NCBI GenBank assembly: GCA_026390575.1
Contig: JAPLFR010000001.1
Location: forward strand, 1-64,000
Direction: 5' to 3'
Length of the DNA stretch: 64,000 bases
From: Ignavibacteriales bacterium
GTDB taxonomy: Bacteria > Bacteroidota > Ignavibacteria > UBA10030
A program made the position numbers and the translations under genes. Shown here piece after piece: positions 39,029 to 45,455 of this stretch. Numbering within the stretch: the first letter of the stretch is position 1; each line of letters begins with the position of its first letter. The notes beneath the pieces are model-generated. The model did not search any database, had not been told where the DNA came from, and saw only the letters and a program-made list of their open reading frames with translations.

Positions 39029-42000
39029 ATGAAACGAATTATTTTGATATGTTCCCTCCTCAGTCTCTGTTCGTTTCCGATGCTTGCACAAGATTCGAAA
39101 GAGAACGCCGATTTCAAACTTGCCGTGAACCTCTATAATGACAAGTTATACGATCTGGCATTGGAACAATTCCAAGCATTTATCAACTTGTATCCTTCTA
39201 CAGCACAAGGCGTTGAGGCACATTTCTATCTTGGACTGTCGCAATCCAAGCTTGGTAAACACGACGAAGCACGGTTCACCTTCCAAAATTTTGCTCTTGC
39301 ATATTCTGACAACAGTAAAGCTCCTGAAGCGTGGATGAACGCCGCAGAGGAATATGCGGCTATGAAGAATGAGCGCGAGGCAGCAATGGCGTTCGAACGC
39401 GTTAAGACGTTTCATCCGAAGAGCAAGTTCGCACCGATTGCATTGTCAAAAGCAGCGGATTATTACGAACAGCTTGGCGATAAGGAAAATACGAACCGTG
39501 TTCTTCGCATGTTGACGCAAGAGTACACGACAGCCGAAGTCCTACCGGCGCGGCTAAGAATTGCGGAAATGCTTATTGTGGAAGGACAGTATGAACTAGC
39601 GCGTCAGGAATGTAAACGTGTTGCGGATGCAGCAAACGATGCACCGTTGAAGGCTCGCGCGTTGTTGCTGTTGGGCCAAGCTCTTGCAGGGTTAGGGAGA
39701 ACTTCCGAAGCGGAGGAAGCAATCTCTGATGTCGCGAAGAATTTTAAATCCACCTCAAGCTATAACAAGGCGCTCTTCACGCTCGGTGTGTTGAAGAATC
39801 TCGCGGGCAATACAGATGATGCCATGGCAGCATGGAAATCGCTCGCAGAGGACAGTGCCAAAGCGCCGAAACAGTTGCGGCAAGATGCCTACATCGAAAT
39901 GGCGGAGGCAAACAATCACGTTCGGTCATATCCGCGTGCGTTAGCCTTGTATGAACGAGCAAGCGAAATTCGAGGAGTGCGCAATGGGGAAGTGCTCTAC
40001 AAAGCCGGCATTGCGGCAGAGCAGACGGGTGACCTCACAAAAGCGGCGCAGTATTATTCCCGTGCGCTCAATGATAGTCTTGGCAGTGTGGATCGACGGG
40101 CATTGGTCGTTGGTGCATATAAAGCTGCGAAGATAACGAAAAACTTCACCGAAGCTGTGCGATTGGTAAATGACTACCGCCAGCAATTTTCATCGGATGC
40201 GAATTTGCCGCGTCTTCTGGTTGAGGGTGCAAGGATAGCGAACACGGAACTGCGTGATCCAAAAACAGCCATCGATTTTTGCGAATGGCTGCGCGAACGT
40301 TATTCTGCGAGCGAATGGATTGATGATGCGACTTTTGAACTTGGTGAAGCGCGGATAAAAGCCGGCGATGTTGACGGAGCAATTGATGCCTTCGAAAATT
40401 TGCAAAGACGTTATCCGAGCAGCGAATTTGTTCCGGATGCACAAAAACAAATTCGTCTCATCAAAGCGTTCGATCAACGAAGTAAGGATGCAAGTCTGCA
40501 AAAACTTGCATTGCTGGTAGGGGATGTGATAGCACAGAAATCAAAAGGCAATCTTGCATACCGCCTTGCAGAAATCTACTTCTTTGATTTGAAAGATTAC
40601 AATCTTGCCGCAGGGCAATACGCGTATGCACTCAGCGTCGATTTGGAAGATGCTCTCCGGCCTTCTGCGTGGATGAAACAAGCACAGTCCTATGAACTGC
40701 TTGCGCTGAAAGAGGAAAAAACGAGCGCACGAGAAAAAGAATATATTTCCAAAGCCATCGCGTTCTATGATTCACTGGCAGCATATTTTCCGGCAGGTGA
40801 ACTCACAGATCAAGCTGTTGTGGCTGCATTTACACTCCGCTTGCAATTGACAGAGAAGCCGGAAGATTTGCGAACACTGGGAACAGAATTTTTGTCGAAG
40901 TCTTCTGGAACACGCGGAAGAGACATAGCGCTTCTCTTGCTGGGTGATTCATATTTTTCTGCGAAGAATTATGAAAGCGCAATCCTAACCTATAAACTTT
41001 TGTTGGAAAAATATTCAGATCGTGAGACAGCTCCATCCGCATATTATCACCTAGGCATGTCGCTCGATGGAATCATGGAAAAAGATTCCGCACTCCAAGT
41101 GATAGATCGATTTCTCTCCCATAATCCAAATCACACGTACAGCGCGGCTGCAGCGGCGTACCTCGCAAAAGCGGCAGCGGACAGCGCTCGATTAATCAAA
41201 GCGCTTGGTTTTTTTGATCTCCTGGAGAAACGATACTTTTACAGTCCGTTGAATTCGAATATTGATATACGAAAAGCAGACGCATATTTCAACGCGAAGG
41301 ATTTCAAGAATGCTTTCGATTGGTATGAACGAGGATGGAAAAGAATGCGGTCGGATTTCTTCGCTGTGACCGGCGATCAGAACGTTGAGCGTTCCATAGT
41401 CTTCAACCTCGGAGCGTGCAGTGAAAAACTTGGCAATCACGCGGCGGCAAAGAAATATTATGCCGATTATGTAACGCGGGATCAGGCGACCGAGAAAGCC
41501 GGACAGGCGTACTATGCTCTTGCATCTATCGCGAAGGCAGAAAATGATATTGATGCTGCTACAACATATTTGCAGAATGTAAGTCGCATCGCAGTGAAGA
41601 CAGGTGGACAAGGGGCATCGGTAGCGCTGGAAACAGCAGAAATGTTATTTCGGAATGAAAAATATTCCGATGCGATTGTGAAGTATAATGCGGCACTATC
41701 GCAAACAAACAATGATAGTCTGAAACACTACATCCAATCACGCGTGATTATATCATACTTCCGTCTTGATAATATAAAAGAAGCGGACAAACGTGCCGCG
41801 GAATTTGTAAAAACGAATGACGCAGGTTTGTTGAGCTATGCAGCAGAGTTTGAATTTGAGCGCGGCAAATATCAAGTCCGGAAGGAAAATTTCATAAAAG
41901 CGAAAGAGCGATTCGACAATGTCGTTCTTTCTTATCGAGGGGCTGCTGTTGTTCCTGAGGCGCTCTTCTGGATAGCGCATGTGCATGAGCTGGATCAAAA

Positions 42001-42682
42001 AATGCCTGAGGCAGTGCAGCTGTATGATTCTCTTCTGCGGAATTTTCCAAACGACGGTATTCTGCCGCGCGCGCGGCTGAGTCTTGGCAATGCATATTAT
42101 AGTATGGAACAATGGGACAATGCTTCCAAACAGTACCGTTTCATTCTTGATAATGAAGAGCGCTCCCCCGATCTTGTTCCGCTTGCCATGAGCAATTTGA
42201 TTATGACCTATAAGGAAATGGAGCTTTTCGACGGTGCATTAGAACTGACCCGCAAGTTCATCGATCGTTTTCCGAACGATCCGGATCTCATCGATAAAAA
42301 AATCGATATGGGTGTGCTCTATCAGAAGCTCGGATACTACGATCAATCGATTCTGCAATTGCAAAGTTTGATTGCAGCCGGCAACTCCGACCTTGAAGCG
42401 GAACTCCGGTATTACATTGGTGAAGCGTACTTCTACAAGGGAGAATATCAACAAGCTGTTTTAGAATTTCTGAAGGTACCATACCTGGTTACGAAACGAG
42501 GCAAAATTGATTGGATTTCAACTTCTTACTATATGGCGGGTCAATCGTATGAAAAAACATCCAAGTACGATCAGGCAATGACGATGTACAGGCAGATCGT
42601 CGATCGGAAAGATACTGATGCACAGTTTAAAACAGCAGCACAAAAAGAAATAGACCGCGTAAAAGCTATATTAAAAAAATAG
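39029..42682 (+). CDS. 1217-residue periplasmic TPR protein
   Basis: A signal peptide (LICSLLSLCSFPMLAQ) is followed by TPR-like helical pairs along the whole length. Recurrent motifs include YDLALEQFQAFINLYP, AHFYLGLSQSKLGKHDEA, DKENTNRVLRM and KYDQAMTMYRQIVDR. Repeats of the kind found in BamD/YbgF-type proteins are visible at both ends. Very long TPR proteins of this type are typical of this bacterial group and are thought to act as envelope scaffolds. It stands alone on the plus strand, followed by a small mobile-like unit. Confidence 0.85.
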   Translation: MKRIILICSLLSLCSFPMLAQDSKENADFKLAVNLYNDKLYDLALEQFQAFINLYPSTAQGVEAHFYLGLSQSKLGKHDEARFTFQNFALAYSDNSKAPEAWMNAAEEYAAMKNEREAAMAFERVKTFHPKSKFAPIALSKAADYYEQLGDKENTNRVLRMLTQEYTTAEVLPARLRIAEMLIVEGQYELARQECKRVADAANDAPLKARALLLLGQALAGLGRTSEAEEAISDVAKNFKSTSSYNKALFTLGVLKNLAGNTDDAMAAWKSLAEDSAKAPKQLRQDAYIEMAEANNHVRSYPRALALYERASEIRGVRNGEVLYKAGIAAEQTGDLTKAAQYYSRALNDSLGSVDRRALVVGAYKAAKITKNFTEAVRLVNDYRQQFSSDANLPRLLVEGARIANTELRDPKTAIDFCEWLRERYSASEWIDDATFELGEARIKAGDVDGAIDAFENLQRRYPSSEFVPDAQKQIRLIKAFDQRSKDASLQKLALLVGDVIAQKSKGNLAYRLAEIYFFDLKDYNLAAGQYAYALSVDLEDALRPSAWMKQAQSYELLALKEEKTSAREKEYISKAIAFYDSLAAYFPAGELTDQAVVAAFTLRLQLTEKPEDLRTLGTEFLSKSSGTRGRDIALLLLGDSYFSAKNYESAILTYKLLLEKYSDRETAPSAYYHLGMSLDGIMEKDSALQVIDRFLSHNPNHTYSAAAAAYLAKAAADSARLIKALGFFDLLEKRYFYSPLNSNIDIRKADAYFNAKDFKNAFDWYERGWKRMRSDFFAVTGDQNVERSIVFNLGACSEKLGNHAAAKKYYADYVTRDQATEKAGQAYYALASIAKAENDIDAATTYLQNVSRIAVKTGGQGASVALETAEMLFRNEKYSDAIVKYNAALSQTNNDSLKHYIQSRVIISYFRLDNIKEADKRAAEFVKTNDAGLLSYAAEFEFERGKYQVRKENFIKAKERFDNVVLSYRGAAVVPEALFWIAHVHELDQKMPEAVQLYDSLLRNFPNDGILPRARLSLGNAYYSMEQWDNASKQYRFILDNEERSPDLVPLAMSNLIMTYKEMELFDGALELTRKFIDRFPNDPDLIDKKIDMGVLYQKLGYYDQSILQLQSLIAAGNSDLEAELRYYIGEAYFYKGEYQQAVLEFLKVPYLVTKRGKIDWISTSYYMAGQSYEKTSKYDQAMTMYRQIVDRKDTDAQFKTAAQKEIDRVKAILKK

Positions 42683-42697
42683 GAATACGAAGATTTG

Positions 42698-43157
42698 GTG
42701 ATTGAGTGATTGAGAGAGTGAGTGATTAAGAGAACGAGAGATTGATTCATTGTAAAAAGTCAACCGGAAATATTAAGAGATCGAACAAAACAATTTGCTA
42801 TTGGAATTGTTAGACTCGTTCGGATATTCCCGAGTAATGAAGAGAGTAAGATTATAGGAAGACAATTGATGCGTTCTGCAACATCTGTTGCTGCAAATTA
42901 TTGTGCGGTTTGCAGAGCCCGTTCAAAAGCAGAATTCATTGCGAAAATTGGTATTGTTGTAGAAGAAGCTGATGAAACAGTGTTTTGGCTTGAAATGATA
43001 ACAGAACTCAATATACTTTCCACAGAAAAGACGGGTGACTTGCTTAAGGAAGCAAATGAATTGCTTGCTATTTTCTCAGCCTCCCATCAAACAGTACGTG
43101 GTAGGAGATAAAATGTATTTTCCTCATAATCCTTTAATCGCTCAATCACGCAATCAC
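42698..43157. repeat. 460-bp unit bounded by 17-bp inverted repeats
   Basis: GTGATTGAGTGATTGAG (42698-42714) and CTCAATCACGCAATCAC (43141-43157) are inverse complements with one mismatch. The unit contains only the IVS-type four-helix-bundle gene. Extra tandem copies of the GTGATT motif follow the left arm. No target duplication was identified. Confidence 0.65.
42749..43111 (+). CDS. Four-helix-bundle protein (23S rRNA intervening-sequence type)
   Basis: The reading frame is open from just after an in-frame TGA at 42743 and encodes 120 residues if read from an ATT at 42749. The product matches IVS-type four-helix-bundle proteins over its whole length: RTKQFAIGIVRLVRIFP, IIGRQLMRSATSVAANY, SKAEFIAKIGIVVEEADET, WLEMITELNIL. 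Their usual size is about 115-125 residues. The only standard starts (TTG 42866, ATG 42869) would remove the first helix. Either ATT is used or the gene has lost its start. Confidence 0.78.
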   Translation: MVKSQPEILRDRTKQFAIGIVRLVRIFPSNEESKIIGRQLMRSATSVAANYCAVCRARSKAEFIAKIGIVVEEADETVFWLEMITELNILSTEKTGDLLKEANELLAIFSASHQTVRGRR

Positions 43158-43176
43158 ATAATGGCTTAATTTAACA

Positions 43177-45455
<2,279 letters not shown>

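What the first reader, a model, noticed from the sequence alone, without database searches (positions are those of the whole stretch)
42698..43157. 460-bp unit with 17-bp inverted ends and an IVS-type gene lacking a standard start
IVS four-helix-bundle genes are known from intervening sequences in 23S rRNA genes and also occur alone. Here the gene sits in a unit bounded by near-perfect inverted repeats, like a small mobile element, and its full-length frame begins with ATT.
Basis: partly seen in the sequence, partly recalled or inferred. Interest (0 to 1): 0.58.

Follow-up and report, generated by a model that had tools for sequence, protein, structure and literature searches.

The report
IVS gene cassette with mirrored repeats
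A small gene of a family known from insertions in ribosomal RNA sits here between two mirrored arrays of a short repeated word; the same design recurs around its relatives in many bacteria, each with its own word, which points to a widespread and little-described kind of mobile gene cassette.

Summary
The 17-nt ends (42698-42714, 43141-43157) match at 16 of 17 positions in inverted orientation, and between them lies an open IVS-type frame (PF05635/TIGR02436) with no ATG, GTG or TTG near its start. The ends are not a classic terminal repeat: they are the best-matching part of two mirrored arrays of a degenerate octamer. The same design flanks most IVS genes examined: 77 of 85 loci from at least ten phyla have a 7/8-nt-period array within 150 nt on at least one side, 53 on both. 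Each locus has its own unit, shared by its two arms; heptamer arms most often hold five cores. At one orthologous site in 48 Dyadobacter-group genomes the gene is present in 20, in lineages that largely keep their own unit; sister species with 94% identical flanks carry IVS genes 71% identical. Arm mismatches show no G·U preference, so RNA pairing alone does not keep the arms alike. At the window's own site a relative has an ATG-started ortholog, and others have gene or array remnants, so the ATT start is probably decay. How the cassette moves, and whether the pentameric protein binds the cores, is untested.

The parts
42690..42748 (+). left arm: degenerate octamer array (GTGATTGA and variants), ending just before the frame
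   Evidence: array detected at 42683-42724
42749..43111 (+). IVS-type gene (PF05635/TIGR02436), frame from ATT to TAA; no ATG, GTG or TTG before 42866
43112..43162 (+). right arm: inverted octamer array
   Evidence: array detected at 43122-43172
43141..43157 (-). best-matching 17 nt of the right arm
39029..42682 (+). upstream neighbour, TPR-repeat protein gene, same direction
43177..44436 (+). downstream neighbour, 419-aa gene without a Pfam match at E 1e-5, same direction; used to find the same site in relatives

Best explanation
The unit is one copy of a widespread IVS cassette: an IVS gene, usually in the same direction as its neighbours, in the loop of a hairpin whose two arms are mirrored arrays of a 7/8-nt repeat (core GATTG-like, spacer free). 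Shown: the architecture, its recurrence, a unit that differs by locus but is shared by both arms, the link of unit type to gene lineage in one genus, and exchange of arms plus gene together. Inferred: the arms are kept alike at DNA level (copying between arms, or recognition of both ends by one protein) rather than by RNA pairing. Also inferred: the arms are multi-core binding or landing sites for the IVS protein, whose family forms a pentameric ring, with about one core per subunit, much as ring-shaped TRAP reads evenly spaced triplets (the TRAP comparison is recalled). The cassette spreads between sites and species and is lost by deletions that leave arms behind; the window copy, with no usual start codon, is probably beginning to decay.
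For: Within-locus inverted similarity far above ORF-flank and cross-locus controls. Period 7, 14, 21 in arms chosen by inversion alone. Arrays near 77 of 85 and 35 of 41 IVS genes. Of eight distinct array hairpins with 350-560 nt between the arms found away from the known gene, six hold another IVS gene. Core conserved and spacer free across loci. Mode of five cores in heptamer arms. Unit order mirrored. No G-U excess among arm mismatches. Element shared without flanks between L152 and L171 and between L019 and L020. L195/L200 carry different IVS lineages and units in 94.3% identical flanks, and units of the two arms correlate across 20 species. Remnants at the window site. Pentamer reported for the family (PMC4990558 section 3); 2rld has five chains.
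Against: No binding or mobility was tested. Octamer loci show no sharp five (9 of 30 arms on each side) and the Dyadobacter arms have a mode of four; the window's arms count eight and five. Gene-less array hairpins are common (17 distinct short ones in the wide loci), so arms may exist without the gene. In the own-genome sample arrays of period 6 and 12 exceed shuffles about as much as period 7/8. The same-direction bias is also what an ordinary operon gene shows. No target-site duplication was identified. Arm-arm correlation was not corrected for phylogeny.
Confidence: 0.55

Rival explanations
1. RNA element: the cassette works like the IVS of 23S rRNA but in an mRNA. It is transcribed with its neighbours, folds into a stem of the two arms, and RNase III cuts it out, splitting the mRNA between the flanking genes. 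The arms are alike because pairing is selected.
For: Both neighbours run with the IVS gene in 79 of 113 classified loci, against it in 11. The RNA fold pairs the arms, z -2.68. 23S IVS are cut by RNase III in their stem, and the Coxiella one has heptamer repeats there (PMC4990558).
Against: Mismatches between arms are 132 G-U and 147 A-C (p 0.40), and in the own and related loci A-C even exceeds G-U (33 against 52, p 0.05); 477 of 756 are of transversion type.
Confidence: 0.3
2. Passenger: 7/8-nt array hairpins are an independent, gene-less class of intergenic hairpin, and IVS genes merely land in their loops, as they do in loops of 23S rRNA helices.
For: 17 distinct short-loop array hairpins without a full gene in the wide loci; L229 and L230 have gene-less hairpins with the units of their IVS-bearing relatives; L141 has a gene-less hairpin with a 6-nt loop where L125 has the gene; Nostoc trnL introns have heptamer stems (passages of PMC4476775 and PMC3488679).
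Against: Arms travel with the gene between unrelated flanks; unit type follows the IVS gene lineage; partial genes between arms show that gene-less forms can be derived (L048; L173, by eye).
Confidence: 0.25
3. Ordinary transposon or MITE with terminal inverted repeats and a lost or distant transposase.
For: Inverted ends, scattered copies, transfer between species.
Against: Ends differ from copy to copy in one genome; no transposase among the four neighbours scanned; no target-site duplication identified.
Confidence: 0.05
4. Chance: low-complexity intergenic DNA that happens to look inverted.
For: Further arrays exist in the own genome: 15 in 444 kb, two of them the target's, and periods 6 and 12 are also in excess.
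Against: Scores far beyond ORF-flank and cross-locus controls; period and core shared across phyla.
Confidence: 0.02

Closest known systems
IVS of 23S rRNA genes with S23p gene (Coxiella, Leptospira)
   Same: Same protein family, size near 430-460 nt, complementary ends forming a stem; the Coxiella IVS has three or four heptamer repeats before the gene (PMC4990558 sections 3, 16, 19).
   Different: Here the unit lies between protein genes; the single 23S gene of the genome matches the model from end to end in 2,931 nt, with no insertion. Mirrored arrays as a general feature were not described in the sections read.
Nostoc/Calothrix trnL intron P6b stem of 7-nt repeats (TDNGATT, NNTGAGT)
   Same: Degenerate heptamers with a GATT core forming both sides of a stem; unit classes that do not follow host phylogeny (PMC4476775, passages).
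   Different: Inside a group I intron, without an IVS gene in the passages seen.
Avd protein of diversity-generating retroelements
   Same: PF05635 is said to resemble Avd in sequence and structure (PMC10053308, passage).
   Different: No reverse transcriptase among the four neighbours scanned; two RVT_1 matches lie elsewhere in the genome.
TAACTGA heptamer repeats of Beggiatoaceae and others
   Same: Intergenic 7-nt tandem repeats, also in some Cyanobacteria and Bacteroidetes (PMC4679880, passages).
   Different: One fixed unit, mostly direct orientation; the words S23, four helix and intervening sequence do not occur in that text.

Membership tests
IVS protein family (PF05635 / TIGR02436) | Profile match over the curated cut-off | tested here: met
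   59 bits (cut-off 33.8) and 85.2 bits (cut-off 24)
IVS of 23S rRNA | Lies inside an rRNA gene | tested here: not met
   Lies between protein genes; the genome's 23S match is uninterrupted
IVS of 23S rRNA | Complementary ends able to form a stem | tested here: met
IVS of 23S rRNA | Excision by RNase III | not testable with these tools
Transposon or MITE with terminal inverted repeats | Ends common to the copies of one genome | tested here: not met
Transposon or MITE with terminal inverted repeats | Transposase, own or nearby | tested here: not met
   The IVS gene is the only frame of 50 aa or more wholly between the arms on the + strand; four neighbours scanned. The rest of the genome was not searched for transposases
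Transposon or MITE with terminal inverted repeats | Target-site duplication | tested here: inconclusive
   Filled and gene-less sites compared by eye; deletions and array remnants blur the borders
Diversity-generating retroelement (Avd) | Neighbouring reverse transcriptase | tested here: not met
   template and variable repeats were not searched for
TRAP-like ring binding evenly spaced cores | Number of cores equals number of subunits | tested here: inconclusive
   Mode of five in heptamer arms, not sharp in octamer arms, four in Dyadobacter
TRAP-like ring binding evenly spaced cores | Binding of the repeat by the ring | not testable with these tools
   -

The most novel reading that the evidence does not exclude
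IVS cassettes are a distinct class of minimal mobile element in which a pentameric ring protein reads an array of about five evenly spaced cores at each end, one core per subunit. Protein and unit co-evolve, so each lineage has its own word; the two ends are copied from one another; and the cassette colonises hairpin loops, in intergenic DNA, 23S rRNA and introns alike.
Probability: 0.22. Interest if true: 0.88.

Novelty: new variant of a known kind. Interest (0 to 1): 0.68.

Why it matters
What IVS proteins do and how IVS elements arise and spread is called unclear in the one study of which I read the main sections (PMC4990558, Discussion). A constant architecture (mirrored arrays, a core with free spacers, about five cores per heptamer arm) gives the protein a concrete candidate ligand and makes both questions directly testable. 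It also links three things reported separately: 23S rRNA IVS, trnL-intron heptamer stems, and stand-alone four-helix-bundle genes.

Tried and rejected
Classic transposon or MITE: disfavoured because the window's end is not shared by other IVS loci. RNA-pairing selection as the sole cause of arm similarity: disfavoured by the absence of a G-U excess. 'Exactly five cores everywhere': softened after splitting by period and by the Dyadobacter mode of four. Rfam search of 42300-43600: nothing at E up to 1. The random-position control was spoilt (runs of N scored as matches) and is not used; the ORF-flank control is. Searches were run before I noticed that genome-search loci lie in contig orientation: the arm scores are symmetric and stay valid, but 'upstream' is mislabelled there for minus-strand loci; the first empty-site reading missed minus-strand loci and was completed. 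Rows dropped before counts: L150 (contig end); L018 (protein identical to L156); loci below the arm-score thresholds (108 of 125 passed; 103; 95; 96 in the permutation test); three short loci from the orientation count; one of the 20 stretches (masked).

Full report
OBSERVATION. The unit lies between the stop codon of a TPR-protein gene (39029-42682) and a 419-aa gene (43177-44436), all on the + strand. The 17-nt ends are real (16 of 17) and belong to longer arms, 51 nt at 73% complementarity. The left arm reads as a row of octamers (GTGATTGA and variants). The inverted-flank score of 17.5 exceeds all 296 ORF-flank controls (maximum 14.5). The frame is an IVS protein by Pfam and NCBIfam and is open from TTC-ATT-GTA; the first usual start codon in frame is TTG 42866.

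OTHER COPIES IN THE GENOME. TIGR02436 gives 14 matches at 13 places in the own genome (two matches are adjacent pieces of one copy), all over the cut-off. Nine of these 13 loci score 13 or more in the inverted-flank test (the 99th percentile of the controls); the other four score 10.5 to 11.5. The arms differ in sequence between loci. The window's 17-nt end with up to two mismatches occurs nine times, three of them within this element; the other six places are not arms of the IVS genes found, although some lie in array-like sequence. Three of the 13 copies are broken (L004 and L012 by a stop, L013/L014 split). The single 23S match runs from end to end without an insertion.

GENERALITY. For 41 own and related loci the median score is 16 against 8 for ORF flanks; 27 of 41 reach 13, against 4 of 296 controls. 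For 84 of 85 loci (80 genome loci of at least ten phyla by record title, 5 viral-contig loci; one dropped), the within-locus median is 18.5 against 8 across loci; 63 of 84 reach the cross-locus 95th percentile and 46 of 84 are the best pair in their row. Arms chosen by inverted similarity alone show identity at lags 7, 14 and 21 (0.55, 0.52, 0.55 in 158 arms; lag 8 0.47; control 0.26-0.28 from own-genome upstream regions). An array detector that does not use inversion finds arrays within 150 nt on at least one side of 77 of 85 IVS genes (both sides 53) and of 35 of 41 (both sides 23). In 444 kb of the own genome it finds 15 arrays, two of them the target's, against 6, 0 and 5 in three shuffles; periods 6 and 12 show a similar excess (12 and 9 against 1-3), so solitary arrays in this genome are weak evidence. 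In the wide loci more than 400 nt from the IVS gene it finds 84 arrays in 387 kb, 42 with an inverted partner. Among these are eight distinct hairpins with 350-560 nt between the arms; a profile built from 30 IVS proteins finds a further IVS gene in six (L114, L115, L126, L142, L148, L167) and none in two (L120, L158). The arrays thus predicted IVS genes. Seventeen further distinct hairpins have less than 150 nt between the arms and no full gene; one of them, L173, holds a piece of an IVS gene by eye.

ANATOMY. Over 108 of 125 loci the arms have a median of 34 nt; the period is 7 in 73, 8 in 30, 9 in one and undefined in four, and those with a period have a median of 4.6 units per arm. The consensus is G/A-A-T/A-T-G/T plus two free positions (70 heptamer loci), or G/C-A-T-T-G/T plus three more variable positions (25 octamer loci); in heptamer loci heterozygosity within a locus is 0.09 at the core A and 0.41 in the spacer. 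Core counts peak at five: 40 of 108 left and 38 of 108 right arms with a generic core, against 4 of 400 random stretches with five or more; 43 and 36 of 103 with a core chosen on the opposite arm, 27 and 31 of 103 with a strict core; 34 and 27 of 73 in heptamer loci, 9 and 9 of 30 in octamer loci. The Dyadobacter octamer arms have a mode of four (13 and 12 of 20), and the window's arms count eight and five. The order of unit variants is mirrored between the arms more than permuted orders would be (96 loci, mean fraction of permutations at least as good 0.27; 24 loci better than every permutation). This test is somewhat favoured by choosing the best alignment first.

LEVEL OF CONSTRAINT. If pairing in RNA were selected, imperfect pairs should favour G-U over A-C. 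Observed: 132 G-U, 147 A-C (p 0.40) and 477 of transversion type among 756 mismatches in 4,053 pairs over 108 loci; in the 31 own and related loci 33 G-U and 52 A-C (p 0.05). The similarity of the arms therefore looks like DNA-level copying or recognition. The predicted RNA fold of the unit does pair the arms (z -2.68, 1 of 100 shuffles as good), so an RNA role is not excluded. Orientation: of 113 loci that a simple ORF rule could classify, both neighbours run with the IVS gene in 79 and both against it in 11 (15 and 8 mixed); nine more were at contig ends or far from genes and three were too short. An ordinary operon gene would show the same bias; an element inserted at random would not.

EVOLUTION AT THE WINDOW SITE. 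Homologs of the 419-aa gene were found in 28 of 32 genomes of the family, the own one included. Of their 28 sites, two could not be read (L056, L062). An IVS gene stands in two: the window's, and that of G010, another genus, with ATG and octamer arms of another word. G003, of the same genus, keeps only the last 21 residues of the IVS frame and right-hand arrays. G004, G005 and G001 keep what look by eye like array remnants; G002 and several others are short and bare; some of the rest carry gene-less arrays by eye. Loss with arms left behind is thus seen directly. The missing start codon of the window copy fits early decay: only 6 of 125 loci lack ATG, GTG or TTG in frame before the matched part, and 104 of 125 have an ATG there.

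MOBILITY. L152 (Deltaproteobacteria) and L171 (Brocadiaceae), IVS proteins 80% identical, share about 400 nt with arms included and nothing else at this sensitivity; L019 and L020 likewise share about 440 nt plus two matches of 32-33 nt (L019 has little right flank). L125 and L141 carry a related cassette (86% aa) in two neighbouring but different intergenic sites; at each site the other genome has arms, decayed in one case, without the gene. In the genus of L161 (Dyadobacter by record title), 48 of 48 genomes have the flanking isomerase gene. The IVS gene stands in the site in 20 of 48; the tree of the upstream gene needs 13 changes (at least 8 forced by well-supported branches), and presence is not clearly clustered (58-64 of 500 shuffles as low). 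In the IVS gene tree the groups largely coincide with unit type, though one of them has weak support and a few arms are mixed; unit use of the two arms correlates across the 20 species (rho 0.76, 0.72, 0.91, 0.49; not corrected for phylogeny). Sister species L195 and L200 (flank 94.3% identical) carry IVS genes 71.5% identical (75% aa) from different groups, with different main units. Arms and gene are therefore exchanged together, by recombination across the site or by renewed insertion. The proteins are conserved (for example 99.1% aa at 95.1% nt, 95.9% aa at 86.1% nt).

MECHANISM. Most likely the arms are multi-core sites read by the IVS protein, a family with a reported pentameric ring (PMC4990558 section 3; 2rld, five chains). 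About five cores with 2-3-nt free spacers fit one core per subunit. This is inference; the count is sharp only for heptamer loci. The RNA rival and the passenger rival are set out in their sections.

KNOWN WORK. The Coxiella 23S IVS paper (abstract and sections 3, 16 and 19 read) reports heptamer repeats before the gene in that one element. Passages of PMC4476775 and PMC3488679 describe 7-nt repeat stems in the Nostoc trnL intron. A passage of PMC10053308 relates PF05635 to Avd. Nine literature searches listed no paper whose title or abstract start describes mirrored 7/8-nt arrays as a general feature of stand-alone IVS genes; I read into six papers only, the library holds open-licence papers only, and subscription papers were not searched.

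Noticed in passing
L023, L027, L029, L036, L037, just outside the arms: Several IVS genes of related genomes share outer flanks of the type CACTGGTCACCCC on one side and GACGATAGGGGCG-like sequence on the other, as if inserted into one dispersed sequence.
   Followed up: no
L194, L207, L208: In three Dyadobacter-group genomes the site holds a gene-less hairpin of a roughly 10-nt unit (TTGTCAGGTA-like) between remnants of the octamer arms, where relatives have the IVS gene.
   Followed up: partly
L201: A long gene-less hairpin of another unit (GTGAGAT-like) at the same Dyadobacter-group site.
   Followed up: no
G000:C3:8131-8155 (L237): A solitary GTGATT-type array in the own genome without a strong inverted partner within 800 nt; perhaps the remnant of a lost cassette.
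   Followed up: partly
L150:55-264: A long, nearly perfect octamer array (GTTGAATT-type) near a contig end in a Cytophagales genome.
   Followed up: no
L177 and L178: Two IVS genes 12 kb apart in one 42-kb contig classed as viral; gene-less array hairpins of a GAAGAAC-like unit lie near L178.
   Followed up: no
G000:C10:31045-31665 and G000:C1:347977-348612: Two reverse-transcriptase (RVT_1) matches in the own genome, outside the window.
   Followed up: no
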